A DNA stretch of 64,000 bases from Candidatus Sulfurimonas marisnigri (GTDB taxonomy: Bacteria; Campylobacterota; Campylobacteria; Campylobacterales; Sulfurimonadaceae), in the NCBI RefSeq assembly GCF_015265475.1, contig NZ_CP054493.1, forward strand, positions 1,178,001 to 1,242,000, written 5' to 3'. The position numbers and the translations under genes are program-made. The notes under the pieces were generated by a model. The model was given only the letters and a program-made list of their open reading frames with translations, was not told where the DNA came from and made no database searches. Shown here in pieces: positions 12,964 to 29,385 of this stretch (its first letter is position 1; every line of letters begins with the position of its first letter).

Positions 12964-14082
12964 ATGGATTGTAAATATTTCGGAGTATGCGGAGCTTGTA
13001 GAATCTATGAAGATGGATATGCTGCTCAATTAAATGAGAAATTAGAATTAAATAGAGATAGATTTAAAAGTTTTTATAGTGGTGAAATATCTGTTTATGA
13101 TTCCCCCCAGCAAAACTACCGCTCAAGAAGTGAGTTTAAGATTTGGCATGATGGCGACATCCTTCGATATGCAATGAACCATGTGGATAAAAAAGGTGTT
13201 GTATTTGTTGATGAATGTCCGCAAGTCAATGAATTTATATTTGAATTAATGCCAAAACTTCTTTGTGAAATCACTGAGGAACAGATAGGTTTTAAGCTTT
13301 TTGGTGCTGATTTTTTAAGCTCAAGAAGTGGTGAGATAGTTGTTTCACTCCTTTACCATAGAAAGCTAGACGAGGAGTGGCAAGAGAAAGCTTCTGAGAT
13401 AGCAGGAAAACTTGGCATATATATAATAGGTAGAAGTCGCAAGCAAAAAGTTGTTATAGGGCAAGATTATATAACAGAAACTCTACATGTACAGACCAAA
13501 GAATATAAGTTTAACTATATTGAAAACAGTTTCACTCAGCCAAATACTAAAGTAAATGAGCAGATGATTTCATGGGCTTTGAAGAATTTATCTGATATTG
13601 ATGGAGATTTGCTTGAACTTTATTGTGGTGCAGGAAATTTCACTATACCTTTTGCAAAAAAATTCAATAAAGTATTAGCGACTGAAATATCTAAATCATC
13701 TATTAATGCAGCAAAAGCCAATATGCTTTTAAATGATGTAAGTAACATTGAGTTTGTACGAATGAGCGTAGAGGAGTTTGTTCAGGCTCTTGATGGTGTT
13801 AGAAGTTTTAGAAGAATGAATGAAATAGAGATAAGCTCATATAATATTGAGAGTATATTTGTAGATCCGCCAAGAAGTGGAATGGATGTGGCTTCATGTG
13901 AGTTTAGTTCAAGATATGAGCATATTTTATATATATCTTGTAATCCAGAGACATTGGTGAGAGATTTAGAGCTATTATGCCAAACACATGATGTTGTTGA
14001 TATGGCTCTATTTGATCAGTTTCCTTATACCCATCATGTTGAGATGGGTGTTAAATTAGTCAAAAAAGGTAGTAAGCAATGA
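12964..14082 (+). CDS. trmA: TrmA-family RNA (uracil-C5)-methyltransferase
   Basis: 372 residues, close to E. coli TrmA in length. Signatures: NSFTQPNTKVNEQM, the SAM motif ELYCGAGNFTIPFA, VDPPRSGMD, and the catalytic cysteine in YISCNPETL. Oddly for TrmA, the N-terminus has Cys3, Cys9 and Cys12 plus Cys85 in DECPQ, the spacing used for the [4Fe-4S] cluster in RlmC and RlmD as I recall it. So it may methylate U54 of tRNA or be bifunctional or rRNA directed. It begins 6 bases after fliP and overlaps the next gene by 4 bases. Confidence 0.85.
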   Translation: MDCKYFGVCGACRIYEDGYAAQLNEKLELNRDRFKSFYSGEISVYDSPQQNYRSRSEFKIWHDGDILRYAMNHVDKKGVVFVDECPQVNEFIFELMPKLLCEITEEQIGFKLFGADFLSSRSGEIVVSLLYHRKLDEEWQEKASEIAGKLGIYIIGRSRKQKVVIGQDYITETLHVQTKEYKFNYIENSFTQPNTKVNEQMISWALKNLSDIDGDLLELYCGAGNFTIPFAKKFNKVLATEISKSSINAAKANMLLNDVSNIEFVRMSVEEFVQALDGVRSFRRMNEIEISSYNIESIFVDPPRSGMDVASCEFSSRYEHILYISCNPETLVRDLELLCQTHDVVDMALFDQFPYTHHVEMGVKLVKKGSKQ

Positions 14083-14726: not shown

Positions 14727-14918
14727 ATGTGTATTCCTCATGGTGCAACTGGAGCAAAGGATAGTTCTTATATCAACACTAAGCCTAAGAAGCACGTAAA
14801 AAAAGTTGCTCAGCATATATTTGAAAAAGGTGACCCGAATTTCGTTGATGAAAGGCGGTTGGAAGAAGACAGCATAAAAGATAAAAAATCTTTTCTTAGC
14901 TCGCTTTTTGATGATTAG
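14727..14918 (+). CDS. Small hydrophilic protein of unknown function
   Basis: 63 residues, not recognised. It starts MCIPHGATGAKDSS and is rich in lysine, aspartate and serine with no membrane segment. A strong RBS, AAAAGGAG at 14714-14721, sits 5 bases before the ATG, which supports a real gene. It stands alone between trmA's partner and the chemotaxis cluster; the recurrent word ACATGTAG occurs just upstream at 14701-14708. Confidence 0.65.
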   Translation: MCIPHGATGAKDSSYINTKPKKHVKKVAQHIFEKGDPNFVDERRLEEDSIKDKKSFLSSLFDD

Positions 14919-14964: not shown

Positions 14965-15017
14965 GTTATTTTAATAAAGTTCTTACATTCCTTCTAGTAC
15001 AATCATTATAAAATTTA

Positions 15018-15023
15018 TATAAT
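15018..15023 (+). promoter_or_regulatory. Probable -10 element upstream of cheY copy 1
   Basis: TATAAT 52 bases before the cheY ATG, inside repeat A, so the same element exists for copy 2. A further AT-rich stretch surrounds it, so the exact position is uncertain. Confidence 0.35.
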
Positions 15024-15075
15024 AAATATTTTGGGAAGTTAAATTTCTTGAATGAGTAATATAATGGAGAATAAT

Positions 15076-15462
15076 ATGAGTAAAAAAATTATAATAGTAG
15101 ATGATTCGAAGACTGTTCTGGCAACTGCAGAAATGGCTTTAGAAGGCTTAGTTAATGATGGAACAATTGTCTTAAAGACATACGTGAATCCAGCAGAGCT
15201 TCATGATGCATTAATTGGTGGAACTGAAGATTATGACCTGCTGATAAGTGATATAAATATGCCTCAGTTAAATGGTTTGGATTTAGCAGCAGAACTCAAG
15301 CAAATTGCTAATTTTAAAAGCAAGCCAATTCTTATTTTGACTACAGAGAGTTCAGCTGAAATGAAGACAAAAGGAAAAGAAATCGGTGTTACTGGATGGC
15401 TTGTTAAGCCTTTTAGTGATGAGAAGTTAGTTAAAGCCATTAAGATGGTATTGGGAATCTAA
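15076..15462 (+). CDS. cheY: CheY-like response regulator, copy 1
   Basis: 128 residues, a single receiver domain with Asp9, Asp10, phospho-acceptor Asp59 (in LISDINMP), Thr in LILTTESS and the conserved Lys in LVKPFSD. It would receive phosphate from the cluster's CheA. An earlier in-frame ATG at 15052 exists, but GGAG at 15066-15069 is spaced correctly for 15076. Five bases separate it from cheW. The protein is identical to copy 2. Confidence 0.93.
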   Translation: MSKKIIIVDDSKTVLATAEMALEGLVNDGTIVLKTYVNPAELHDALIGGTEDYDLLISDINMPQLNGLDLAAELKQIANFKSKPILILTTESSAEMKTKGKEIGVTGWLVKPFSDEKLVKAIKMVLGI

Positions 15463-15467
15463 ATTAT

Positions 15468-15974
15468 ATGGATAATAAGAAAAAAATAAAAGAGATTAGT
15501 ACAGCGCATAGGTACTTAACCTTTTTTGTTGATGATGAGCAGTATGGTATAGATATCTCTAGAATAAAAGAGATTATAGCTCCTATAGCAATAACACATA
15601 TACCAAAGACCCCACCATTTGTAAAAGGTGTTATTAATTTACGTGGTTCAATTATTCCCGTAGTTGATGTAAGACTGAAATTTGATATGCAAGAGCGTGA
15701 GATAGATATCAATACCGCAATTATAATCTATGAAGTAGATAAATCTTCCATAGGATTCATAGTTGATCAAGTAGAAGATGTTCTCTCTATAGAAGATAAG
15801 TATATTTCCGATGCCCCTCGATTTGGAGGAAATATTGACACAACTTTTATAGAAAATATAGCTGAAGTAGGTAATGATGTTATCATGCTTTTAAACCTAG
15901 AAAAAATATTTGAACCAGAAGAATTATTAGATATAACCAAACTAGAACATGAATATATAAATGAGGAAGAGTAA
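15468..15974 (+). CDS. cheW: CheW coupling protein, copy 1
   Basis: 168 residues with a single CheW domain: [22 protein letters not shown] near the N-terminus (residues 16-37), the [13 protein letters not shown] signature, [11 protein letters not shown] and [11 protein letters not shown]. It links CheA to the receptor. The stop overlaps the ATG of the first receptor by one base (TAATG), so adaptor and receptor are made together. Identical protein to copy 2. Confidence 0.95.
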
Positions 15975-17908
15975 TGAAAAAATTGACACTAACCACACGG
16001 ATTAACTTAGGATTTGCATTATTAGTGATAATAACATTAGCTTTAGGTGTTATTTCTATTGTAAATATGAAAAGTAGTGAAGTTGATTCTCATAAATTAG
16101 CAGAAATATATGTCCCTGAAGTAGAAATTGCTAACAATATAGAGCGCTATGCAATATTAGCAATGTATGATATTAAGAGTTATTCTTTAAGTGAAGATAA
16201 AAAATTTTTAGATTCGGGAAGAAAAACTATCAAAAAAGTAAAACATTACCTAGATGAAGCTAAAGAATTTGCTCAAAGATTCTCTTTAGCTGACTTAGTT
16301 AAGCAAGAAGCTGAAGCAAGAAAAAGTATAGATATATATGAAGAATTAGTAACTGAAATTGAAGAACTTAAGAATGCAACTGTTAACGCAAGAATTTTGA
16401 TGGATGAAAGTGCTGATGTATTTATGAAAAACGCTAATTTATATCTTTATAGCAGTAATAAAATACTTGAAAAAGAAATTTTAAATAAATCAGCTAATTA
16501 TAAGCTTAGTAGAAGTGTTCAAAAAATTACATTGATTAATGAAATAATTAATTTAGTGAATGATTCAGCGATAAAAAACTTCAAGTTTCAATCATCTGGT
16601 AAAGTAGAAATTTTAGATTCAGCTTTTGAAAACTTTATTAATATTGAAAATAGACTAAAATTAATTAGAAAAAGCACCTTCATAAAGGCAGATATAAATA
16701 AAATAGATGTATTAAGTAATAGTACCAATAATTATGAAAAAGCTATTAAAGGATATTTGTTCGCATGGAAAGAGATGAAATTTATTAATGTACAAATGGA
16801 TAATGCTGGGGGAATTGTCTTAAAATCCTCTCAAATTATCTCCAAAATCGCAATGGAGAATGCAAATAATATATCAAAAGAATCTGAAGAAAATTTATCA
16901 AAATCTTCTTACATTTTAATGGTAGGCTTAATTATTTCACTTATAGTTGGTGCTAGTATTTCTATATTTCTTGGATATTTCATAACAAAGCCAATTATAA
17001 ATGCTGTTAAATCTATTATTGAATCGAACGAGCAAGTGTTAAGTGCTTCTACAGAGATTGCAGATTCTGCTACAGCTCTTGCAGAAGGTGCGAGTGAGCA
17101 AGCTAGTAGTGTTGAGCAAGTTAGTGCTACAGTAGAAGAGTCTACAGCAATTAATAATCAAAATTCAACTAACTCTCGTGAAGCTGATATCCTAGCTAAA
17201 GATGCTAAAGCTTCTGCTGAGAATGGTTCTAAAAAAGGTGAAGAATTAATAGAATCGATGAATGAGATTAATAAATCAAGTGAGAGAATTTCTAAAATTA
17301 TCAAAACAATTGATGAGATTGCTTCACAAACAAAACTTCTGGCACTTAATGCTGCAGTAGAAGCTGCCCGTGCAGGTGAACATGGTCTAGGGTTTGCAGT
17401 TGTTGCAGATGAAGTTAAAAGTCTTGCTCAACGCTCCTCAGATGCTTCTACTGAGACAGCGGCTATTATCGAAGAGTCAATTGCTCAAACAAAAAAAGGT
17501 GCAGAGATAGCTAAACTTACTTCTCAATCATTTGAAGATATTCTAGACCGTATAAATAAAACATCTAACCTTATAAGTGAAATTTCTGTATCTGCAAAAG
17601 AACAGAGTGATGGAATGAATCAAATTGCTATAGCAATAAGCGAAATAGACCAAGTTACACAACAAAATGCAGCTACAAGCGAAGAGACAGCCGCATCTTC
17701 AGAAGAACTTAGTGCACAAGCAGTATCTATGAAAGAAACTGTAAATATTATTGCTGCCATGGTTGGTGAATCAACAACTATATCTGAAAATACACATACG
17801 ATAAATCAAGTAAAACGTTCTCCAAAAAAAGCTAAATCTGTAAGGTCGTATTCAAGAGGTTCTAAAGATATCTTTCCATTAGATGAAGAAGACCTTAAGG
17901 AGTTTTAG
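15974..17908 (+). CDS. Methyl-accepting chemotaxis protein 1, long helical (HBM-like) sensor
   Basis: 644 residues. TM1 is about 11-32 and TM2 about 313-336, enclosing a periplasmic domain of about 280 residues that is all helical and asparagine/lysine rich, fitting a helical bimodular (HBM) sensor. After TM2 comes [11 protein letters not shown] and then the signalling coiled coil with tip [22 protein letters not shown] see no room for a canonical HAMP domain. From base 16985 on, it is identical to the second receptor, while the first 337 codons are unrelated to it. Ligand unknown. Confidence 0.93.
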
Positions 17909-17935
17909 ATGACTATTGATGGTGATACTCTTGAA
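16985..17935 (+). repeat. Direct repeat B, copy 1 (receptor signalling domain plus STAS start; 951 bp)
   Basis: Matches 20051-21001 at an offset of 3066 bases with no difference that I could see. It begins just after TM2 of the receptor and runs through the receptor stop into the first nine codons of the STAS-like gene. Beyond 17935 the copies diverge at once. Confidence 0.97.
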
Positions 17936-17941
17936 GTTTAG
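17909..17941 (+). pseudogene. 10-codon remnant of the STAS-like gene after receptor 1
   Basis: ATG ACT ATT through CTT GAA matches the first nine codons of the intact gene at 20975, followed by GTT and a TAG stop. It directly follows the receptor 1 stop as the intact gene follows receptor 2. It is a duplication scar: the upstream unit was copied from an arrangement that continued into the STAS gene. Confidence 0.9.
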
Positions 17942-17958
17942 CTTGTGTAAATGTATAT

Positions 17959-17994
17959 AAATAATAAAAATTAATTAATTAATTTTTATTATTT
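17959..17994. repeat. 36-bp perfect AT-only palindrome at the duplication junction
   Basis: The sequence is its own reverse complement, centred on TTAATTAATTAA, with arms rich in A then T. It lies between the STAS remnant and the start of repeat A copy 2. It could form a hairpin acting as a terminator for the first unit, or an extruded structure that favours recombination. Confidence 0.85.
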
Positions 17995-18041
17995 TTAATA
18001 ATGTTCTTACATTCCTTCTAGTACAATCATTATAAAATTTA

Positions 18042-18047
18042 TATAAT
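18042..18047 (+). promoter_or_regulatory. Probable -10 element upstream of cheY copy 2
   Basis: Same TATAAT as at 15018-15023, carried within repeat A, so the second unit has its own copy of the putative promoter. Confidence 0.35.
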
Positions 18048-18099
18048 AAATATTTTGGGAAGTTAAATTTCTTGAATGAGTAATATAATGGAGAATAAT

Positions 18100-18486
18100 A
18101 TGAGTAAAAAAATTATAATAGTAGATGATTCGAAGACTGTTCTGGCAACTGCAGAAATGGCTTTAGAAGGCTTAGTTAATGATGGAACAATTGTCTTAAA
18201 GACATACGTGAATCCAGCAGAGCTTCATGATGCATTAATTGGTGGAACTGAAGATTATGACCTGCTGATTAGTGATATAAATATGCCTCAGTTAAATGGT
18301 TTGGATTTAGCAGCAGAACTCAAGCAAATTGCTAATTTTAAAAGCAAGCCAATTCTTATTTTGACTACAGAGAGTTCAGCTGAAATGAAGACAAAAGGAA
18401 AAGAAATCGGTGTTACTGGATGGCTTGTTAAGCCTTTTAGTGATGAGAAGTTAGTTAAAGCCATTAAGATGGTATTGGGAATCTAA
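18100..18486 (+). CDS. cheY: CheY-like response regulator, copy 2
   Basis: 128 residues, identical in protein sequence to copy 1; the only base change found (18270) is silent. The same phospho-acceptor Asp59 and RBS GGAG are present. This copy sits directly upstream of the cheW, receptor, STAS-like, cheA and cheR series, so it is the copy joined to the full operon. Confidence 0.93.
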   Translation: MSKKIIIVDDSKTVLATAEMALEGLVNDGTIVLKTYVNPAELHDALIGGTEDYDLLISDINMPQLNGLDLAAELKQIANFKSKPILILTTESSAEMKTKGKEIGVTGWLVKPFSDEKLVKAIKMVLGI

Positions 18487-18491
18487 ATTAT

Positions 18492-18998
18492 ATGGATAAT
18501 AAGAAAAAAATAAAAGAGATTAGTACAGCGCATAGGTACTTAACCTTTTTTGTTGATGATGAGCAGTATGGTATAGATATCTCTAGAATAAAAGAGATTA
18601 TAGCTCCTATAGCAATAACACATATACCAAAGACCCCACCATTTGTAAAAGGTGTTATTAATTTACGTGGTTCAATTATTCCCGTAGTTGATGTAAGACT
18701 GAAATTTGATATGCAAGAGCGTGAGATAGATATCAATACCGCAATTATAATCTATGAAGTAGATAAATCTTCCATAGGATTCATAGTTGATCAAGTAGAA
18801 GATGTTCTCTCTATAGAAGATAAGTATATTTCCGATGCCCCTCGATTTGGAGGAAATATTGACACAACTTTTATAGAAAATATAGCTGAAGTAGGTAATG
18901 ATGTTATCATGCTTTTAAACCTAGAAAAAATATTTGAACCAGAAGAATTATTAGATATAACCAAACTAGAACATGAATATATAAATGAGGAAGAGTAA
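18492..18998 (+). CDS. cheW: CheW coupling protein, copy 2
   Basis: 168 residues, identical to copy 1. Here the stop is followed by a 5-base gap before the receptor 2 ATG at 19004, whereas copy 1 overlaps its receptor by one base. The junction of the duplicated and the differing DNA is therefore at the cheW stop codon. Confidence 0.95.
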
Positions 18999-19003
18999 TA
19001 AAA

Positions 19004-20974
19004 ATGACAATTAAAAAACAGTTGACTACGGCACTATGGTTAGTAGGCTCGATACCATTTATAGTAATAGCACTTACATCTTATTATAAATCAAGTACAG
19101 CTCTATCTTTAGAAGCAGTTGATAAAATGGAGATGGCAAGAGATTTAAAGAAAAATCAGCTACTTGGTTATTTTGAAATGCTTAAAGGAAGTGTTGAGAG
19201 CTTTTCTGAAAACAGAAATCTTCATGTAATGTATGATGAATTAGTAGTACTGCATAATAAATATAATGTTACTCCAGATGGTCCATGGAATATAACTACT
19301 AACTCCGAAGTATTGGATGTTTATGCTAGGTATGATAATTATTTTAGAAAATATATGGATGATAATAATCTTGCTGACATTACTATTATGTGTGCAAAGC
19401 ATGGACATGTTATGTACTCGGTACAAAAAAACTCTGATCTTGGTCAAAACCTTATAACAGGAGAACTCCGCAATAGTCCTCTTGCGGAGGCATTTAATAT
19501 AGCTCTTAAAGATAAAGAGTCACATTTGACTGACATGAGTCCTTACTCGCCATTAAAAGGCTCACCAGTTATGTTTCTTGGAGCCCCTATATCTGAAGCT
19601 GGTAAAGTAGAGTCTGTGATTACGGTTCAGATTGATTCTAGATTAATTAATAAAATTATGCATGACCGTACAGGAATGGGCGAAACAGGAGAGACATATT
19701 TAGTTGGACAAGACTCTCTTATGAGAAGTGACAGCTTTATAGATCCGAAAAATCGCACAGTTTATGCTTCATTTAAAAACCCTTCAGTGGGGTCAGTAAA
19801 AACAAGTTCTGCGAAGAATGCTTTATCTGGAGAGACAGGCACAGATATTATTGTGGATTATGAGGGTGACTATGTTATGTCAGCTTATACCCCATTTGAA
19901 TTTCTTGATTTGAAATGGGCAGTTATTGCTGAAATTGAAAGAGATGAAATATTTGCAGCTGTTATAGAGCTTCGTAATTATACGTTAATAATGGCGGCTA
20001 TTTTTGCTATTCTTGTAATATCTGCTGCTTTGCTCCTAGGAAGTTTTATTACAAAGCCAATTATAAATGCTGTTAAATCTATTATTGAATCGAACGAGCA
20101 AGTGTTAAGTGCTTCTACAGAGATTGCAGATTCTGCTACAGCTCTTGCAGAAGGTGCGAGTGAGCAAGCTAGTAGTGTTGAGCAAGTTAGTGCTACAGTA
20201 GAAGAGTCTACAGCAATTAATAATCAAAATTCAACTAACTCTCGTGAAGCTGATATCCTAGCTAAAGATGCTAAAGCTTCTGCTGAGAATGGTTCTAAAA
20301 AAGGTGAAGAATTAATAGAATCGATGAATGAGATTAATAAATCAAGTGAGAGAATTTCTAAAATTATCAAAACAATTGATGAGATTGCTTCACAAACAAA
20401 ACTTCTGGCACTTAATGCTGCAGTAGAAGCTGCCCGTGCAGGTGAACATGGTCTAGGGTTTGCAGTTGTTGCAGATGAAGTTAAAAGTCTTGCTCAACGC
20501 TCCTCAGATGCTTCTACTGAGACAGCGGCTATTATCGAAGAGTCAATTGCTCAAACAAAAAAAGGTGCAGAGATAGCTAAACTTACTTCTCAATCATTTG
20601 AAGATATTCTAGACCGTATAAATAAAACATCTAACCTTATAAGTGAAATTTCTGTATCTGCAAAAGAACAGAGTGATGGAATGAATCAAATTGCTATAGC
20701 AATAAGCGAAATAGACCAAGTTACACAACAAAATGCAGCTACAAGCGAAGAGACAGCCGCATCTTCAGAAGAACTTAGTGCACAAGCAGTATCTATGAAA
20801 GAAACTGTAAATATTATTGCTGCCATGGTTGGTGAATCAACAACTATATCTGAAAATACACATACGATAAATCAAGTAAAACGTTCTCCAAAAAAAGCTA
20901 AATCTGTAAGGTCGTATTCAAGAGGTTCTAAAGATATCTTTCCATTAGATGAAGAAGACCTTAAGGAGTTTTAG
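19004..20974 (+). CDS. Methyl-accepting chemotaxis protein 2, dCache-like sensor
   Basis: 656 residues. TM1 is about 8-27 and TM2 about 326-348. The periplasmic part (about 290 residues) has dCache features: a long N-terminal helix, [47 protein letters not shown] and the membrane-distal to proximal [19 protein letters not shown] split over 215-245. The cytoplasmic part from base 20051 is identical to receptor 1. The cache type usually binds small metabolites such as amino acids; the ligand is not predictable here. Confidence 0.94.
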
Positions 20975-21001
20975 ATGACTATTGATGGTGATACTCTTGA
21001 A
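20051..21001 (+). repeat. Direct repeat B, copy 2 (951 bp)
   Basis: Second copy of the receptor signalling domain block; see 16985-17935. In this copy the DNA continues into an intact STAS-like gene. Confidence 0.97.
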
Positions 21002-21238
21002 ATTGAGCTTGATATGGATATTAAAGATGTACTTGAACTAAAAAACTTTATAGTTGATAGACTTGAGTATATTGAAGCTGTTTCACTTATAGGAGAGATG
21101 AATGAATTTTCTTCATCCTCACTATTGCAGTTGCTTTTTAGTATAAAAAAATCTAAACCATCAATTACAATAAATGCAATTGATACAGATTTAAAGTTAG
21201 AGAATTATGGTGTAATACATTGGGTAAATAATGACTAA
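20975..21238 (+). CDS. Small STAS-like domain protein
   Basis: 87 residues. The pattern LELKNFIVDRLEYIEAVSLIGEMNEFSSSSLLQLLFSIKKS (residues 20-60) with serines after a strand and followed by a helix is STAS-like, the fold of anti-anti-sigma factors. Such proteins occur in several chemotaxis operons, where their role is unclear. The ATG directly follows the receptor 2 stop, and the end overlaps cheA by 8 bases. A conserved phosphorylatable serine is possible, but which one is not certain. Confidence 0.7.
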   Translation: MTIDGDTLEIELDMDIKDVLELKNFIVDRLEYIEAVSLIGEMNEFSSSSLLQLLFSIKKSKPSITINAIDTDLKLENYGVIHWVNND

Positions 21239-23333
21239 AGAGCAGATACGAGATATATTCATTGAAGAAGCAACGGAGATTATTGAAAAGTTAGATGTTG
21301 ATATTATTAATTTTGAAGATAATCCGCAAGATAAAGATTTACTGAATGAACTATTTCGTGGCGTACATACTTTAAAAGGAAGTGCCAACTCTTTCGGATT
21401 TACTAGACTTGGTGAGTTTGTGCACCATTTTGAAGATGTGCTTGATTATTACCGAAATACAAATGATATTGTAAATCCACAAAACATTGATCTATTTTTA
21501 TCTTCTGTTGACATAATTAAAGATGTTATGTGGAGAGAAGTTGATGGTAACGAGGGTGTGCCAGATAATTTCAACAATATATTAGAAGGTATAAAATCTA
21601 TTTTATCACAAAGTACAGTAGGTTCAAAAGTTGAACATGCTGATTTAGCAATTGACTTTTCAGAACAAGCAAAAGTAATAAAAAGTAATTTCAGTGAAGA
21701 AGATATTATTAGAATGAAGAGTACACTAAATTATGGAGAAGAGTTATATCACATTTCTTTAACCCTTGACGATGATATATTTTTTCGTGGGTTTGATCAT
21801 GCACGACTCTTCAAGCTACTTAGTGATGAAGGTCAGATACTTGAATCTTGGTGGAATATGGATGATATTCCCACTCTTGATGAACTGAATCCGGAGAGAA
21901 GCAGTATTAAACATGTAGATGTTTTTTTCGCTTCTGATAAGCCATCAAGTGAAATTGAAGAGTTGTTTGAGTATATAGATGAACATGAATATAGTTTTGT
22001 ACATGTAGAAAAAGATGTAGAAAAAAAACCTGAACCTGAACCACTAAGAGATGAAGATATTAAGTTCGGACGCAGGGAAATTGATAATGAAGTAAAAACA
22101 TCTGGCCGTAGAGCAAACGATAGGGATGATACAAAAGCTGGAGTTGGTCGTAGAAAAAACGATGCACGCTCTTTTGTGAAAGTCGACACTACTAAGCTTG
22201 ATGAACTTTTTGATTCAATTGGAGAAATGGTAATTGCACAAAATTTTCTTGCCGAAAACGAAGAGATAAAAAAGATTAAAAGTGAGGGTATTACAAAAAC
22301 TATAAATGTCCTTTCAAAAATTACACGTTTAATTCAAAATAGAGTTATGTCACTACGAATGGTAGCCGTAAGTGATACTTTTGAGAAAATGAAACGGGTT
22401 GCTCGCGATGCAAGCAAAAAAGTAAATAAAGAGATATCTTTAGAAATTTATGGCGCTGATACTGAAATAGATAAAACAATGGTAGATGCTCTTTCTGATC
22501 CTCTTATCCATATCATGCGTAATGCAATTGACCATGGCCTGGAAGATTGCACAGAAGACAGGATTGCAGTAGATAAAACAGCTATAGGTATTATAGGACT
22601 AAGAGCATTTCACAGGGGTGGAAATATAGCCATTGAAGTTTCTGATGATGGACGAGGTATAAACCGTGATAAAGTCTTTTCTAAAGCAGTAGAGCGTGGA
22701 CTGATTGAAGAAGATGATGATTTAACTGACGCTCAGGTATTTTCACTAATTATGCAGGCTGGTTTTTCTACAGCAGATGTAATTAGTGATATATCTGGTC
22801 GCGGAGTTGGTCTTGATGTTGTACGCTCATCAATTGAAAAGTTGCATGGACGAGTTGAGATAGCTTCTGAGGTTGGAAAAGGTTCTACTTTTACTATTTT
22901 ACTTCCATTAACCTTAGCTATTATCGATGGTATGATTGTTAAAAGTGCCGGTGATACCTTTATTATTCCAACACTCTCTGTAGTCGAATCATTTATTCCC
23001 TCCAAAGAGATTGTTCACTCCATTAAACGAAAAGGTGAATTTGTTGATTTAAGAGGAGAGATGATTCCTGTAGTAAGATTAAATCATGTGCTTGAAATTG
23101 GTGAAGCTAAACCTAATATTTGGGAATCTACACTTATGTGCGTCGAGAGTGAAAAAGGCAAATATGCTATTTTGGTAGATGACCTTGTTGGAAGACAACA
23201 GGTAGTTATAAAATCACTTGGTTCAACGCTTTCAAGAATAAAGGAGCTATCAGGCAGTGCTATTATGGGTAGTGGAGAAATTGCTCTTATTCTAAATGTA
23301 GAAGAATTGCTTATTCAAGGATGCATAAAGTAG
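21231..23333 (+). CDS. cheA: CheA chemotaxis histidine kinase, no receiver domain
   Basis: 700 residues. P1/HPt with phospho-acceptor His46 (GVHTLKGSANSFGF), a middle domain with LDDDIFFRGFDHARLFKLL, a charged linker at about 278-312 with three GRRxxD units, the P3 dimerisation helices, the HATPase with HIMRNAIDHGLED, VSDDGRGI and SGRGVGLDVV, and a C-terminal CheW-like domain (P5). Unlike CheA of Campylobacter and Helicobacter there is no fused receiver. It phosphorylates CheY and CheB. It overlaps the STAS-like gene by 8 bases and cheR by 13. Confidence 0.97.
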   Translation: MTKEQIRDIFIEEATEIIEKLDVDIINFEDNPQDKDLLNELFRGVHTLKGSANSFGFTRLGEFVHHFEDVLDYYRNTNDIVNPQNIDLFLSSVDIIKDVMWREVDGNEGVPDNFNNILEGIKSILSQSTVGSKVEHADLAIDFSEQAKVIKSNFSEEDIIRMKSTLNYGEELYHISLTLDDDIFFRGFDHARLFKLLSDEGQILESWWNMDDIPTLDELNPERSSIKHVDVFFASDKPSSEIEELFEYIDEHEYSFVHVEKDVEKKPEPEPLRDEDIKFGRREIDNEVKTSGRRANDRDDTKAGVGRRKNDARSFVKVDTTKLDELFDSIGEMVIAQNFLAENEEIKKIKSEGITKTINVLSKITRLIQNRVMSLRMVAVSDTFEKMKRVARDASKKVNKEISLEIYGADTEIDKTMVDALSDPLIHIMRNAIDHGLEDCTEDRIAVDKTAIGIIGLRAFHRGGNIAIEVSDDGRGINRDKVFSKAVERGLIEEDDDLTDAQVFSLIMQAGFSTADVISDISGRGVGLDVVRSSIEKLHGRVEIASEVGKGSTFTILLPLTLAIIDGMIVKSAGDTFIIPTLSVVESFIPSKEIVHSIKRKGEFVDLRGEMIPVVRLNHVLEIGEAKPNIWESTLMCVESEKGKYAILVDDLVGRQQVVIKSLGSTLSRIKELSGSAIMGSGEIALILNVEELLIQGCIK

Positions 23334-24151
23334 TGAGTATAGAAGAAAATCTAAGTATTTCAGAATTCAAGATGTTCCAAAAACTTATTTATAATGATAT
23401 CGGAATTTCATTGGCGGATCATAAGCGTACACTTGTTCAATCACGACTTAGAAAATGGATAAGGGAGTTTGAACTAGCAAACTATCAAGAGCTTTATGAA
23501 AAAATAGCTAACGATAATAGTGGTCAAATGCTGATGATGCTAGTCAATGCGATTACAACAAATGTAACATCTTTTTTTCGCGAAGAGAGTCAGTGGATTT
23601 ATTTACAAAATAATTTAACTGAAATTTTCGACATAAAAAATAAACGTATTCGTATCTGGTCAGCAGCTTGTTCTAGTGGACAAGAGCCTTACAGTATCAT
23701 TATTTTTTTAAAAGAGCATTTGAAAAATTTTGATGAATGGGATATTAAAATTTTAGCAACAGATATATCTGAAGAAATTTTACTAAAAGCTACTAGTGGT
23801 ATTTATGTAAAAAAAGAGCTAGAAGGTATGCCAAAGAATATACTAATAAAGTATTTTAACGGTTATAAAGATGAATCATTTATGGTTAAAGATGAAATTA
23901 AACAATACGTAGTTTTTCGTACTTTCAATCTTGTTACAGGTGATTTTTCAATTTTTAAAAATAATTTTAATATTGTTTTTTGTCGTAATGTGATGATTTA
24001 TTTTGACCGTCAAACACAAAATCAACTTTTTGAACAGTTTGCAAAATTACTTGAAAAAAAATCACGACTATTTATTGGACATTCAGAATCAATACATCAA
24101 AAAAATTATACGTATAAATTAGTAGCACCATCAATATATAAACTTAATTAA
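23321..24151 (+). CDS. cheR: CheR protein-glutamate O-methyltransferase
   Basis: 276 residues. The N-terminal helical domain is followed by the SAM-dependent methyltransferase domain with TTNVTSFFREESQW, WSAACSSGQEPYSI, ILATDISEEIL and FCRNVMIYFD. It methylates receptor glutamates for adaptation, opposite to CheB. The start overlaps the end of cheA by 13 bases, so expression is coupled. Confidence 0.96.
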   Translation: MHKVVSIEENLSISEFKMFQKLIYNDIGISLADHKRTLVQSRLRKWIREFELANYQELYEKIANDNSGQMLMMLVNAITTNVTSFFREESQWIYLQNNLTEIFDIKNKRIRIWSAACSSGQEPYSIIIFLKEHLKNFDEWDIKILATDISEEILLKATSGIYVKKELEGMPKNILIKYFNGYKDESFMVKDEIKQYVVFRTFNLVTGDFSIFKNNFNIVFCRNVMIYFDRQTQNQLFEQFAKLLEKKSRLFIGHSESIHQKNYTYKLVAPSIYKLN

Positions 24152-24161
24152 GGAAGACATT

Positions 24162-25052
24162 ATGGAGATTTCAAGAATTACAGATAGCGAGCTACTTAAA
24201 GAGATTGGGCGCCGTTTTGAAGAGAAGAAAGCTTCTATTTCAGAGATGGAGTTTATGACAAAAAAACTTCTTGAGCTTAATGAAAAAAATAAAAATTCAC
24301 AAGAGGTTAAAAGTCAATTTTTATCTCTTATTAGAAATGAGTTTAATAACCCTATGTCGTCATTACTAAACATAACAAATATGATAGTAAAAAAAACAAC
24401 AGATCAAAAAATTGCTAATTTATCAGCTATGATGCAGAGTGAGTTGCTAAAATTAGATTTTAGCTTAAAAAATATTTTTGCTGCTTCAGAGATAGAAGCA
24501 GGAGAGACTGCTAATGACTACTCTTCTGTTAATATTGAAAGTATTTTTAACGAAAAGCTAGACTACTTTAGTTTTCTAATTGAAGAAAAATCTTTAAAAC
24601 TAAAATATATAGATGGATGCAAAGAAAAAGTTATTTCAGATTCTCAAAAGATAGATATTATTCTACTCAATTTAATATCAAATGCGTGTGAATACTCATA
24701 CAAGAACTCTGAAATCATAGTATCTGTTGAGTGTAATGACAAAAATTACATAATTAAAGTAGAAGATTCAGGAGAGGGTGTGTATGAAGAGCACACTAAA
24801 GAGATATATAATCGTTTTACGCACTTTGAAACAGGAAATACAAGAGCTACGGCTGGATTAGGCCTTGGACTTAGTGTTGCTCGAGGAATGGTAGAAGCTC
24901 TTGACGGTACGATTGATAATACCATAGAAAATGGGAAGACAGTTTTTACAGTTTTAATAAGTAAAATAGATGAAAGAGACATTGATATATCGACAGGAGT
25001 AGGTTCTAATGAGTTTATATTTGACCATGGTGACGGGATAGTGGAATTTTAG
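24162..25052 (+). CDS. Histidine kinase-like protein lacking the phospho-accepting histidine
   Basis: 296 residues, soluble. An N-terminal coiled coil (1-50) leads into a HisKA-like helix, but where the H-box should read HELRTP it reads NEFNNP (Asn59 at the His position). The ATPase domain looks intact: N box LISNACEYS, G1 EDSGEGV, G2 GLGLGLS and a GKTVFTVLI end. It may be a regulator that binds ATP or acts as a phosphatase or scaffold within the chemotaxis cluster. It lies 10 bases after cheR and 1 base before cheD. Confidence 0.8.
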   Translation: MEISRITDSELLKEIGRRFEEKKASISEMEFMTKKLLELNEKNKNSQEVKSQFLSLIRNEFNNPMSSLLNITNMIVKKTTDQKIANLSAMMQSELLKLDFSLKNIFAASEIEAGETANDYSSVNIESIFNEKLDYFSFLIEEKSLKLKYIDGCKEKVISDSQKIDIILLNLISNACEYSYKNSEIIVSVECNDKNYIIKVEDSGEGVYEEHTKEIYNRFTHFETGNTRATAGLGLGLSVARGMVEALDGTIDNTIENGKTVFTVLISKIDERDIDISTGVGSNEFIFDHGDGIVEF

Positions 25053-25053
25053 C

Positions 25054-25518
25054 ATGTACATAAAGAAATTTATCCATGTTGGAGAAATTCATATTGGTGC
25101 AAGAGAAACTGAAATTAGTACAATTTTAGGTTCTTGTATTTCAGTTTGTATTTATGATTATGTACGTTGCGTTGGTGGAATGAACCATTATTTAGTGCCT
25201 TTGTGGAATGAAAATGGCCTTCAAAGCCCAAAGTATGGAAATATATCAATTCCTCGCTTGATAGAAAGTATGGTAAACATTGGTTGTGACACCAAAAATA
25301 TGGAAGCTAAAATATTTGGTGGGGCAAATGTTATTGATGTTTCAAGCGTTGAGATGATGGTGGGACGAAAAAACATTTTAATTGCTAAAGAGATACTAAG
25401 AGAGTATGGTATTCCAATTGTAGCACAAGATGTGGGCGGTGAAAAAGGAAGACGAATTATGATGCGTAGTGATACTGGGAAAGTTTTTTTAAAATATACA
25501 AAAAGCAGTGATGAATAG
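25054..25518 (+). CDS. cheD: CheD receptor glutamine deamidase
   Basis: 154 residues with the CheD catalytic pair Cys28 (LGSCISVC) and His45 (GGMNHYL), and the later IFGGANVI, NILIAKEIL and DVGGEKGRRI segments. CheD deamidates receptor glutamines to glutamates, creating methylation sites. Neighbouring cheR and cheB complete an adaptation module. Confidence 0.95.
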   Translation: MYIKKFIHVGEIHIGARETEISTILGSCISVCIYDYVRCVGGMNHYLVPLWNENGLQSPKYGNISIPRLIESMVNIGCDTKNMEAKIFGGANVIDVSSVEMMVGRKNILIAKEILREYGIPIVAQDVGGEKGRRIMMRSDTGKVFLKYTKSSDE

Positions 25519-25520
25519 TT

Positions 25521-26564
25521 ATGGGGATAAAAGTCTTAGTAGTTGATGATAGTGCTACAGCAAGAGCTATTCTTACTGATATTTTAGAGAGTGATAGTGA
25601 GATTGAGAGTGTAATGACTGCTCCAGATGCTTATGTAGCTCGAGATAAAATACTAAAGTATAAACCAGATGTTATATGTTTAGATGTTGAGATGCCAAGA
25701 ATGGATGGAATAACATTCTTAAGAAAACTGATGAAATACATGCCTATTCCAGTTGTAATGGTATCTTCTATTACAAAAAAAGGTGCCAGAACAACACTAG
25801 ATGCTCTTGAAGCTGGTGCTGTTGATTTTGTTGCTAAGCCACACTCTAATATATATGAAAATTCTGATGAAATTCGAAGTGAACTTTTAGAAAAAGTAAA
25901 AAGTGCGGCTATGGCACAAGTAAATAAAGATATTAAAATAGATACAAATAGAAAAGTTTTTTATAAAGCATCTACTTTAGAGACTCCTCAAAAGCTTATT
26001 GTTCTTGGCTCATCGACAGGCGGTGTTGAGGCACTTAGGTTGTTTTTGGCTCAATTTCCAAGTAACAGTCCTGCTATATTATTAGTACAACATATGCCTG
26101 TAGATTTTACTAAACAATTTGCACAGAGACTTAACAGCACCTGTAAAATGGATGTTAAAGAAGCAAAAGATGGAGATACACTGGAAATAGGTCAAGTGTT
26201 GATTGCACCAGGTGATAAACATATGACATTAAAACGCTCAGGGCATAGGTATTACGTTCATATTGGTGGTAGAGAAAAAGTTTCAGGTCACTGCCCATCT
26301 GTTGATGTCATGTTTAACTCTGTGTCAAAAGTAGCAGGAGCAAATGCTGTTGGTGTTATTTTAACAGGTATGGGCTCTGATGGAGCAAAAGGACTTCTCA
26401 ATATGAGTAAATCAGGAGCTATGACTTTTGGGCAAGATAAGCAAAGCTCTACGGTTTATGGTATGCCCAAAGCAGCATATGAGTTGGGTGGCGTTAAAAA
26501 ACAAAATTCTTTAGATAAGCTCCCAAAAGATATTTTAGATTATTACAACCAGGATAATAAATGA
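25521..26564 (+). CDS. cheB: CheB protein-glutamate methylesterase with receiver domain
   Basis: 347 residues. The N-terminal receiver has Asp55 (CLDVEMPRMDG); the C-terminal esterase has the catalytic serine in LGSSTGGVEAL (Ser165), His in LLVQHMP and Asp in LTGMGSDGAKG. It demethylates receptors when phosphorylated by CheA. The receiver is absent from CheB of Campylobacter jejuni as I recall, so this cluster is of another class. It overlaps the next gene by 4 bases. Confidence 0.97.
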   Translation: MGIKVLVVDDSATARAILTDILESDSEIESVMTAPDAYVARDKILKYKPDVICLDVEMPRMDGITFLRKLMKYMPIPVVMVSSITKKGARTTLDALEAGAVDFVAKPHSNIYENSDEIRSELLEKVKSAAMAQVNKDIKIDTNRKVFYKASTLETPQKLIVLGSSTGGVEALRLFLAQFPSNSPAILLVQHMPVDFTKQFAQRLNSTCKMDVKEAKDGDTLEIGQVLIAPGDKHMTLKRSGHRYYVHIGGREKVSGHCPSVDVMFNSVSKVAGANAVGVILTGMGSDGAKGLLNMSKSGAMTFGQDKQSSTVYGMPKAAYELGGVKKQNSLDKLPKDILDYYNQDNK

Positions 26565-28090
26565 GTAACCACAATAATATTTCTGAATTAAAAAAGTTGA
26601 CAAAAGACTTAACAATTTTATATGTAGAAGATGATGATCAAATTAGAAAAAGTACAGCAGAAATTTTTTCGCACCTAGTACAAACAGTACATGTAGTGGT
26701 TGATGGGCAAGAGGGATTAGACCTTTATAAGGAGTATTTTTCAGATAATGGTAAATATTATGATATTGTAATAAGTGATATTCAGATGCCGCGTGTTGAT
26801 GGTATTTCTATGAGTAAAATGATTTTAGAATTAAATAAAAAACAAAAAATCATTTTAATATCTGCACATGATGAACATATGCTTGAAGCAATCAATATGG
26901 GCATTGAAGGTTTTATTCAAAAGCCTTTAAAAAGTCAACAAGTTTTTGACGTATTAAAAAAAGTATCTTTAAACTTTCATTCTGATGATATTCAATATTT
27001 TAATGTACTTACTGAGGCTTCGATTATATCGAAATCAGATACAAAAGGTGTAATTACTTATGTAAATGATAATTTTTGTAAAATTACTGGATATTTAAGA
27101 GAAGAGATGCTCGGTCATCCGCATAGTATTTTCAAGCATCCAAATAACTCTGATGAAATTTATAAAGACTTGTGGGACACTATCTCTTCTGGTAAAATAT
27201 GGAGAGACCGAATGGTAAATCTAAATAAAGATGGTTCTGAGTTTATTGCTGAAACTACGATAATACCACTCCTTGGCAGCAACGGAAGTATTAAAGAGTA
27301 TATGGCAATTAGAAATGATGTTACAGAAGTGGTTCACTTTAAGAGAAAAATCTTCTTAGAAGAGCAGGAAAAAGCAAAACGAATTAAAGTTGCAGAGGCA
27401 CAAAAATCTTTCCTTGTTGTGTTTACGCATGAACTTAAAACACCACTAAATGCTATTATTAATTTTACGAAATATGTAAAAAAACAGATAGAGTTGCCTA
27501 AAGAGTTAAATAAAGAAAAGCTCTCAAGCTTACTTGATTCTGTTTTGAGTAATGCAAACGATATGCTTGAAAATGTCACACAAATATTAGAGGTGTCTAA
27601 GTTAAATGCACATAAACTAACCTACAATTACTCAGTATTTAATGCAAAGGATATTGTTTCTGAAGTAATGAAAAGATATAATTCACTTATAACAGAAAAG
27701 AATATCAAAGTTGTATATGATATGCCAGATGATGTTCTAATAAGTAATGATATATTTCGCGTTAAACAGATTTTCTCAAATATAGTTTCAAACGCTATTA
27801 AGTACGGAAATAGTGAGATTAAAATTTCTATTTCAAATAAAGAACATTCAACAATTTCAGTAGAAGACAATGGGCCTGGAATAAAAGATAAAGATGCTAT
27901 ATTTAACCTTTATTCTCAAGAAGATGATGGACTATTAGAGAGAAAAAGTCAAGGTACTGGAGTTGGTCTATACTTTGTTAAACTTCTTTGTGCAGATTTA
28001 CATATTAGTTACAAAGTTGAAGATAGAGATGAAGGTTCTGGAACTAAATTCATTCTTATATTTAATGAAAAAAAAGAAAAAGGTGAATAA
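26561..28090 (+). CDS. Hybrid sensor histidine kinase: receiver, PAS, HisKA, HATPase
   Basis: 509 residues, soluble. Receiver at 15-135 with Asp73 (VISDIQMPRVDG), PAS at about 145-265 (ITYVNDNFCKITGY, GHPHSIFKHPN, ending in MAIRNDVTE), HisKA with His290 (FTHELKTPLNAI) and an ATPase with N box SNAIKYG and VEDNGPGI, GVGLYFVK. The order with the receiver first suggests it is controlled by phosphate from CheA or another kinase and senses a cytoplasmic signal through PAS. It starts within the stop of cheB. Confidence 0.92.
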   Translation: MSNHNNISELKKLTKDLTILYVEDDDQIRKSTAEIFSHLVQTVHVVVDGQEGLDLYKEYFSDNGKYYDIVISDIQMPRVDGISMSKMILELNKKQKIILISAHDEHMLEAINMGIEGFIQKPLKSQQVFDVLKKVSLNFHSDDIQYFNVLTEASIISKSDTKGVITYVNDNFCKITGYLREEMLGHPHSIFKHPNNSDEIYKDLWDTISSGKIWRDRMVNLNKDGSEFIAETTIIPLLGSNGSIKEYMAIRNDVTEVVHFKRKIFLEEQEKAKRIKVAEAQKSFLVVFTHELKTPLNAIINFTKYVKKQIELPKELNKEKLSSLLDSVLSNANDMLENVTQILEVSKLNAHKLTYNYSVFNAKDIVSEVMKRYNSLITEKNIKVVYDMPDDVLISNDIFRVKQIFSNIVSNAIKYGNSEIKISISNKEHSTISVEDNGPGIKDKDAIFNLYSQEDDGLLERKSQGTGVGLYFVKLLCADLHISYKVEDRDEGSGTKFILIFNEKKEKGE

Positions 28091-28092
28091 AG

Positions 28093-29385
28093 ATGAAAAT
28101 ATTAATTGTTGATGACAATAGAGATAATAGAATGACAGTTGAACTTCTATTGGAAGAGTTTGAGAATATAGAAACTTCTGAAGCCAAAGATGGTCAAGAA
28201 GCTGTTGATATGTGTAAAAATAAGCATTATGATATAATTTTCATGGATATTATGATGCCCAATGTTGACGGTATTAAGGCAACAAAAATTATAAAAGCGT
28301 TTGATAAAAAGGTGATGATACTAGCACTAAGTGCTTTAGATGATGATGAGTCAAAAAATCAAATGCTTTCTAATGGTGCGGAAGACTATATTGTTAAGCC
28401 CATAGAAAGTGGGCTTTTTCATCAAAGAATGAAAAATTACTTGCAAATTGTAGAGCTTCGTAAACGAAAGTTATACAACATAAATGCCACTAATGCTTTT
28501 ACTGAAGAAATCTACTCAAGAACTATGGTATTTAACATTTCAACATTACAGTCATTATCTGAATTATGGGACTATTATTTAAATAACTCTTATTATCAAA
28601 TAGAAAGCCTGGAAGATTGCATTAGAATGATATATGCTTATGGACAATTAATTTTAAAAAAAGACAATACGTTTACTATTGTCGCTGAAGAGAATGATGA
28701 TAATTTATATTTAACACTCACCCCTCTAGATGTTATAGGCGAATTGGTTATACAAAGAACATTAGTAAAAAACTATAGTTCTGCTGTTTTTATTCTTAAA
28801 GATAAAGAACTCTCTTTTCGTCTTCCAAAAGCAAAACCAATTACTATTGAGAAAGTTGAAAAGATTGAAGTTACTGATTATCAACAAGATATTTTAGCTA
28901 AGGTACATTTTGATAAAACTACAGCAGTAGAATATGTAGACAACACAGCAGTTTATGTTATTGACAAAATAGAAATTCTTGAGAACACACTACGAGAAGT
29001 TGAAGTCAAAGCAATTGACTTTGAGAAAGATGCCAAAAAGAATACTTTATTTGAGATTACAGAGTTATTTATGGAATATATACATGTTGTTGAAGAGCTG
29101 ATGGAGTTTGAACATTTTGCATATGCACTTAAAACACTTAATGAGTTTATGAGAAATTTAGATATTGAACATGTTGACCCTGCTGATCATAAAAAGTTTG
29201 CTCTTTTATTTATACTTCTTTTAGATGATATCGGAGAGTGGAGAAATAATATATTCATTAAGCAAGAAGCAAACGATGTTCATTATCTTGACTCTTCACT
29301 TTTAAGCTCTTGTCTGCAATTGCAGTCTATATTTGAGAAAAAAGAAGTTTCTCAGCAAGACGAAGATGATTTTGAGCTATTTTAA
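28093..29385 (+). CDS. Response regulator with a large C-terminal domain of unknown function
   Basis: 430 residues. The receiver (1-120) has Asp7, Asp8, Asp52 (FMDIMMPNVDG) and Lys in YIVKPIE. The remaining 300 residues are not recognised: an alpha/beta part (about 140-265) and a helical C-terminus with LFMEYIHVVEELMEFEHFAYAL that could be a dimerisation or four-helix module. It starts 2 bases after the hybrid kinase, its likely partner. No DNA-binding, GGDEF or HD motif is visible. Confidence 0.85.
   Translation: MKILIVDDNRDNRMTVELLLEEFENIETSEAKDGQEAVDMCKNKHYDIIFMDIMMPNVDGIKATKIIKAFDKKVMILALSALDDDESKNQMLSNGAEDYIVKPIESGLFHQRMKNYLQIVELRKRKLYNINATNAFTEEIYSRTMVFNISTLQSLSELWDYYLNNSYYQIESLEDCIRMIYAYGQLILKKDNTFTIVAEENDDNLYLTLTPLDVIGELVIQRTLVKNYSSAVFILKDKELSFRLPKAKPITIEKVEKIEVTDYQQDILAKVHFDKTTAVEYVDNTAVYVIDKIEILENTLREVEVKAIDFEKDAKKNTLFEITELFMEYIHVVEELMEFEHFAYALKTLNEFMRNLDIEHVDPADHKKFALLFILLLDDIGEWRNNIFIKQEANDVHYLDSSLLSSCLQLQSIFEKKEVSQQDEDDFELF

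What the first reader, a model, noticed from the sequence alone, without database searches (positions are those of the whole stretch)
14979..21001. Tandem cheY-cheW-receptor units with identical flanks and swapped sensor domains
Two near-identical direct repeats bracket different sensors: repeat A (cheY, cheW; 997 bp, one silent difference found) then a 1,009-bp HBM-like sensor part or a 1,051-bp dCache-like sensor part, then repeat B (signalling domain; 951 bp, no difference found). A crossover between B copies would delete 3,066 bp and join the HBM sensor to the full cheA operon; one between A copies would delete 3,024 bp and leave only the dCache receptor. Near-perfect identity beside unrelated sensors means recent duplication or ongoing gene conversion. 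It looks like a cassette for exchanging chemoreceptor inputs, which I do not know as a described system.
Basis: partly seen in the sequence, partly recalled or inferred. Interest (0 to 1): 0.88.

Follow-up and report, generated by a model that had tools for sequence, protein, structure and literature searches.

The report
Chemoreceptor pair sharing one recycled half
A Campylobacterota bacterium carries two back-to-back copies of a chemotaxis gene set whose receptors sense through unrelated outer halves but share letter for letter the same inner half; comparison with relatives suggests that recombination re-pairs outer halves with inner halves and keeps the inner halves alike, somewhat as in a known Campylobacter receptor family.

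Summary
In detail: repeat A (997 bp, one silent difference) and repeat B (951 bp, none) flank an HBM and a dCache sensor in a closed 2.49-Mb Campylobacterota genome. The locus is the front of an auxiliary che operon, probably of the published F7 type. Among 135 genus genomes, 30 have this cheW; only the window genome shows two near-identical copies (most others are drafts, where identical copies could collapse). Of ten near relatives read, closed G054 and G061 have one unit with dCache, G040 and G068 one unit with HBM, and G002 and G133 both sensors, with the dCache receptor behind cheB. In G002 and G133 the two signalling halves are shared in part or whole; contigs break inside them, and in G133 the match is a mosaic, identical then 9% diverged. 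Sensor and signalling trees conflict strongly. So recombination has re-paired old sensor lineages with locally homogenised signalling halves; in the window this left a recent heteroallelic tandem duplication. Switching within a strain is not shown, and no further A or B copies were found. Identical signalling domains under different sensors are known in Campylobacter Tlp2/3/4. New variant of a known kind.

The parts
14979..15975 (+). Repeat A, copy 1: upstream stretch (promoter-like by eye), cheY (likely 15076-15462), cheW (15468-15974), first bases of receptor
   Evidence: exact repeat; Response_reg, CheW; upstream block conserved in G054
15974..17908 (+). Receptor 1: HBM sensor (to about 16984) + shared signalling half
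16985..17935 (+). Repeat B, copy 1: signalling half and first 27 bp of the 87-aa gene
17909..17945 (+). 5' remnant of the 87-aa gene, with a stop after 10 codons; last 10 bases match copy 2 at 8 of 10
17960..17993 (.). Perfect 34-bp AT palindrome in the junction between the units (67-bp junction, 9% G+C)
18003..18999 (+). Repeat A, copy 2: upstream stretch, cheY (likely 18100-18486), cheW (18492-18998)
   Evidence: same sequence as copy 1
19004..20974 (+). Receptor 2: dCache sensor (to about 20050) + shared signalling half
20051..21001 (+). Repeat B, copy 2
20975..21238 (+). Intact 87-aa conserved small gene between receptor and cheA, overlapping the cheA start (no meaningful Pfam match; the label STAS in my scripts is recalled, from no call)
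21231..26564 (+). cheA, cheR, histidine kinase, cheD, cheB of the same operon
   Evidence: cheA and the kinase by Pfam; cheR, cheD, cheB named by reading the sequences, not by a family search
26561..29385 (+). Hybrid kinase and response regulator that follow cheB also in G054 and several Sulfurospirillum-type loci; in G133 the dCache receptor lies between cheB and these

Best explanation
This is the input end of an auxiliary che operon whose receptor position is remodelled by homologous recombination. Two old sensor lineages (HBM, the usual one in outgroups, and a che-specific dCache) are kept on a signalling half that is repeatedly homogenised, by gene conversion or by allelic recombination, so that the receptors of the operon present the same inner half to the one CheA/CheW set. 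In the window, a unit promoter-cheY-cheW-HBM receptor ending in a fragment of the 87-aa gene stands directly before the resident unit promoter-cheY-cheW-dCache receptor-87-aa gene-cheA: a recent heteroallelic tandem duplication. Shown: anatomy, identity, absence in the sister genome, tree conflict, mosaic in the G133 assembly. Inferred: that conversion rather than a single recent allelic insertion made the window copies alike, that both receptors signal through the same kinase, and that single-unit segregants arise.
For: (1) The sister genome G054 (closed; CheA 91%) has the same flanking genes and one unit with dCache; no HBM match was found in its genome. A and B of both window copies are equally far from G054 (82.3-82.4% DNA), so they were probably made alike after the split. 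(2) Both sensors are old at this locus: HBM-like receptors (25-32%) stand in the same operon in 8 of 13 outgroup loci annotated, plus one broken one, and nine che-linked dCache sensors of the genus form one group (100/100) against 25 other dCache sensors plus one Arcobacteraceae che-linked one. (3) Signalling halves group by lineage, not by sensor: one clade for the seven dCache signalling halves of the genus is rejected (delta lnL 137, p-AU 3e-41, or 8e-53 without the duplicate row; the group was defined by sensor, but tested after the first tree was seen). (4) Other pairs: in G002 the two receptors share 137 identical bp at the start of the signalling half and 141 before the stop. In G133 they share 53 bp at the start; further on, both read identically for 149 bp and then carry 24 differences in 262 bp, a mosaic expected of conversion. 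(5) Identity fades rather than stops at window boundaries: same residues with silent codon differences just before B, 8/10 matches just after it.
Against: The window copies alone do not separate conversion from one recent insertion of an allele from the same species. G002, G133 and G094 are drafts: the shared middles are inferred from contig breaks and the lack of a second copy, and the identical stretches (53 to 149 bp) are of the size of assembler overlaps, where a consensus could hide small differences. Not every pair is homogenised: an Arcobacteraceae locus (L201) has a second receptor after cheB only 55% alike (119 aa), G016 a receptor-like ORF 53% alike (75 aa), and in G133 the dCache receptor lacks the last 41 residues. 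The trees would also conflict if a dCache sensor had been captured independently on local signalling halves. No expression, signalling or population data.
Confidence: 0.7

Rival explanations
1. A single recent event: DNA of another strain of the same species, carrying the HBM allele of this locus, was added beside the resident dCache allele by unequal recombination; the flanks are alike simply because they are recent alleles, with no continuing conversion. (Overlaps with the best explanation, which leaves this step open.)
For: G054 has the arrangement without the HBM unit; the HBM unit carries a cut-off start of the 87-aa gene as if it came from a complete operon; the HBM sensor has lower G+C than cheA (26.0 v 34.7%).
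Against: Pairs with shared signalling halves recur in G002 and G133 in another gene order, and G133 shows a mosaic; third-position G+C of the HBM sensor is not odd (0.169 v 0.156 in B), and HBM sensors are lower in G+C than cheA in five of five other loci compared, by 1 to 5 points.
Confidence: 0.4
2. An active exchange cassette: units are lost, gained or converted at high frequency so that a population holds cells with HBM only, dCache only and both.
For: About 1-kb identical direct repeats 3 kb apart; both predicted single-unit products exist as states of relatives.
Against: No other copies of A or B found in the genome as donors; no tandem form seen in 29 other genomes with this cheW; no reads available; relatives are different species, so they show evolution, not switching.
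Confidence: 0.12
3. Assembly artefact: two alleles of a mixed sample placed in tandem.
For: Repeats longer than short reads; listed contamination 1.94%.
Against: Single contig; a distinct 67-bp junction with a gene remnant and palindrome between the units; one mismatch between copies. How the genome was sequenced is not known to me.
Confidence: 0.06
4. Plain tandem duplication with later loss of similarity in the sensor by selection.
For: Tandem order.
Against: HBM (all helical) and dCache have separate orthologues in relatives; divergence would not stop at sharp edges while flanks stay identical.
Confidence: 0.02

Closest known systems
Campylobacter jejuni Tlp2/Tlp3/Tlp4 (and CcrG/Tlp11) receptors
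   Same: Several receptors in one genome with identical (CcrG to CcmL: 90% identical) signalling domains and divergent sensors; duplication or domain swap proposed; extensive recombination among Tlps reported, and recombination between conserved Tlp 3' ends proposed to invert about 92 kb (passages of PMC9769880 and PMC5080441; passages and section 28 of PMC6433261).
   Different: Those receptors are spread over the genome (some adjacent or one gene apart) and Tlp2/3/4 all have dCache_1 sensors; here the receptors belong to one che operon, the sensors are of two folds, cheY and cheW are duplicated with them in direct tandem, and separate pairs with a mosaic occur in relatives.
F7 chemosensory class of Sulfurospirillum/Sulfuricurvum/Sulfurimonas (gene order F7_Sulfurospirillum)
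   Same: Extra che cluster beside the F3 system with one or two cognate receptors in the cluster (section 6 and passages of PMC9321776; the gene-order figure was not seen).
   Different: In the parts read the paper does not report sensor exchange, shared signalling halves or tandem cheY-cheW-receptor units.
McpS-type HBM receptors
   Same: Predicted fold of sensor 1 matches the McpS ligand-binding domain.
   Different: 12-13% sequence identity; Pfam HBM model does not match the window protein; ligand unknown.

Membership tests
F7-class che operon | gene order with cheY, cheA, cheR, cheD, cheB in one cluster (PMC9321776 gives cheYARDB for Arcobacter) beside another che system | tested here: inconclusive
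   order matches with cheW, receptor and kinase in between; three further CheW-type matches elsewhere in G000; the paper's figure for the Sulfurospirillum order was not seen
F7-class che operon | 36-heptad signalling domain and placement of CheA in the F7 tree | not tested
   class taken from PMC9321776 for these genera; heptads not counted here
HBM sensor | two stacked helical bundles like McpS | tested here: met
   (pLDDT 89.4; TM to 2yfa_A 0.83 by target)
HBM sensor | match to Pfam HBM PF16591 | tested here: not met
   no match in window protein; weak in L189 (E 0.0012, under cut-off); relative L188 matches 4HB_MCP_1 over its first 95 residues instead
dCache sensor | Pfam dCache_1 over cut-off | tested here: inconclusive
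   window 35.6 bits under 45, none for the sensor part alone; four of four orthologues over it; structure model failed (pLDDT 38.7)
Tlp2/3/4-like set (identical signalling domain, different sensors) | identical signalling domains within a genome | tested here: met
Tlp2/3/4-like set (identical signalling domain, different sensors) | common descent with C. jejuni Tlp2/3/4 | not tested
   Tlp sequences not compared
Recombinational expression cassette (silent donors plus expression site) | silent donor copies elsewhere in genome | tested here: not met
   no further A or B copies found (40 of 134 candidates scored)
Recombinational expression cassette (silent donors plus expression site) | variants within a clonal population | not testable with these tools
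   no reads

The most novel reading that the evidence does not exclude
The front of this che operon is a natural sensor-exchange site: a signalling half kept uniform by conversion acts as a landing pad on which sensor halves are swapped between strains and species, and the tandem window form is an unstable intermediate that sheds either sensor, so that populations hedge between two chemotactic inputs wired to one kinase.
Probability: 0.2. Interest if true: 0.72.

Novelty: new variant of a known kind. Interest (0 to 1): 0.48.

Why it matters
It gives a clean natural example of how bacteria may acquire new chemotactic inputs without breaking the receptor-kinase interface: one old sensor lineage replaces or joins another while recombination keeps the signalling half the same. 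The tandem form makes this testable, since it predicts measurable RecA-dependent segregation into two defined single-receptor strains.

Tried and rejected
Plasmid search gave 361 records, none covering most of the query; the 20 listed match 4-7% of it, in the conserved receptor hairpin; no sign of a mobile origin. The dCache structure model failed, so its fold rests on Pfam and orthologues. The 87-aa gene has only weak, unrelated Pfam matches and the small ORF at 14727-14915 none. The promoter scan was uninformative: 25 sites, 33 expected. A foreign origin of the HBM sensor by G+C is not supported by third positions. G094 was kept apart as a weak case: two dCache receptors, draft 74% complete, C355 may be an assembly chimera. 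G130 and G105 were read but hold HBM-like receptors in other gene settings and were not counted. One search was a first sensor tree with only 8 of 23 other dCache loci, because it read one strand; one search replaces it with all 23 plus two of the window genome's own.

Rows not covered: the receptor is off-contig in G036 and partial in G066 and G057; G106, G117, G119 and G134 (with this cheW) were not read. In one search two of 38 rows are receptor tails (178 and 137 aa), L187 was labelled HBM without a BLAST match to the window sensor, and long branches were flagged; one search repeats the test on 20 HBM/dCache rows without L201.
Full report
Observation. The repeats are exactly as described. 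Repeat A (14979-15975 / 18003-18999) has one silent difference in 997 bp, and repeat B (16985-17935 / 20051-21001) has none in 951 bp. No other long match was found in the 2,488,728-bp single-contig genome. Eleven further rows share only 89-120 bp with B, at 74-81%, although the genome has 20 receptor-type signalling domains (21 rows, one being the second half of a split match). No 25-mer but those of A and B is directly repeated in the window.

What the parts are. cheY and cheW are ordinary. Sensor 1 is predicted to fold as a helical bimodular (HBM) domain (pLDDT 89.4) whose four best solved matches are McpS chains. Sensor 2 is taken as a dCache domain: it is under the Pfam cut-off in the window protein and unmatched when the sensor part is scanned alone, and over the cut-off in four of four orthologues scanned; its own structure model failed. 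By inspection B begins at about the inner end of the second membrane helix. It encodes the signalling half and runs 27 bp into an 87-aa gene, which in the second copy is intact and overlaps the cheA start; in the first copy that gene is a stub with an early stop. A relative of the 87-aa gene stands between receptor or cheW and cheA in 9 of the 12 loci that hold cheA; it was not detected in L199, L201 and L202.

The organism and operon. The gene order fits what PMC9321776 (section 6 and passages read) calls the F7 cluster of Sulfurospirillum/Sulfuricurvum/Sulfurimonas, additional to F3 and with one or two cognate receptors. I did not count heptads or place CheA in a tree.

Relatives. In one search, 30 of 135 genomes of the genus have this cheW at E <= 1e-30. 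Only G000 has two near-identical copies. G133 has two from two different operons, and 28 have one. Four of the 29 others are single contigs (G054, G060, G061, G134); in the drafts identical copies could have collapsed. I read the operon in 25 of the 29 others plus G057. Ten have the closely related signalling half (65% or more; G057 by cheY, 75%). One unit with dCache: G054 and G061, G090 (frame broken), G057 (contig ends in the sensor). One unit with HBM: G040, G068. A distant HBM-like sensor: G025 (27%). Both sensors: G002, with HBM before cheA and dCache after cheB, and G133, with dCache after cheB and two further genes. Two dCache receptors in a fragmented draft: G094. The other 16 have one receptor of another lineage between cheW and cheA where it is on the contig (off-contig in G036); G016 has a further receptor-like ORF after cheB. 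Two of two of these receptors scanned are four-helix-bundle sensors. HBM-like receptors lie in the same operon in outgroup loci (BLAST match to the window HBM in 8 intact loci, 25-32%, and in two pieces in L192; none in L187, L199, L201, L202), so HBM is probably the older state.

Shared halves recur. In G002 the contig with the HBM receptor ends in the signalling half with 137 bp identical to the dCache receptor's, preceded by diverged homologous codons. The next contig begins with the last 141 bp of a receptor, identical to its own other end. No second full signalling half of this kind was found in that genome. In G133 the two receptors share 53 bp from the sensor edge to the contig end. Further on, both read identically for 149 bp and then differ at 24 of 262 positions (10 synonymous and 10 non-synonymous codons), and the dCache receptor ends 41 residues earlier. 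A simple recent duplication does not give such a mosaic; conversion does. In G094 two dCache receptors are identical over the last 127 bp before the contig break near the start of the signalling half. These lengths are of the size of assembler overlaps; the collapsed middles were not read. Two other clusters have a second receptor that is not alike: L201 (55% over 119 aa, 76% DNA over 187 bp) and G016 (53% over 75 aa).

Trees. Nine che-linked dCache sensors of the genus form one group (100/100) against 25 other dCache sensors and one Arcobacteraceae che-linked sensor. Signalling halves instead group by lineage: G040/G068/G133/G094 regardless of sensor (100/99), and G000/G054/G002/G025/G061/G090 regardless of sensor (100/99) (G133 by its two tails). 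Holding the seven dCache signalling halves of the genus together is rejected. The G094 C355 receptor has a sensor of one lineage on a signalling half of the other, with the caution that this contig may be chimeric.

The window event. G054 has the same flanks with a single dCache unit, and its A and B are 82.3-82.4% identical to both window copies. The window copies therefore probably became alike after that split. At the edges identity fades into older homology: silent codon differences before B, 8 of 10 matches after B, and a diverged stretch of about 20 bp before A (by eye). The HBM unit's stub of the 87-aa gene suggests that it once stood directly before a complete operon. The simplest account is a heteroallelic tandem duplication with homogenised flanks. 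Whether conversion followed or the donor was simply a recent allele is open.

What is not shown. There are no data on signalling, on ligands or on the population. No donor copies were found elsewhere in the genome, so it does not look like a silent-cassette system; whether a recombinase gene is near was not searched for. Seven literature searches in the held library found the Campylobacter precedents, seen as passages and one section, and the Campylobacterota survey PMC9321776, seen as one section and passages. None of the listings showed a paper describing this locus or gene conversion between chemoreceptor signalling halves; in PMC9769880 'gene conversion' is used for turning into a pseudogene.

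Noticed in passing
window 20975-21238: Conserved 87-aa gene before cheA, with relatives in 9 of 12 cheA-bearing loci; no meaningful Pfam match.
   Followed up: partly
window 17960-17993: Perfect 34-bp AT-only palindrome in the 67-bp junction between units; by eye a weaker one stands before the first unit.
   Followed up: no
window 14727-14915: 63-codon ORF between the gene at 14079 and the first unit, absent at that place in G054; no Pfam match.
   Followed up: partly
L073 (G025): The operon lacks cheR, the kinase, cheD and cheB between cheA and the hybrid kinase.
   Followed up: no
L181 and L137 (G133): One genome holds two different operons of this kind, one with a 547-aa receptor and one with the HBM receptor.
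   Followed up: partly
L139 (G094 C355): A dCache sensor of one lineage sits on a signalling half of the other lineage and is followed by the hybrid kinase instead of cheA; real deletion or assembly chimera.
   Followed up: partly
L201 (Arcobacteraceae RS_7_4): A che operon of another family also has a che-linked dCache receptor before cheA and a second, unlike receptor after cheB.
   Followed up: partly
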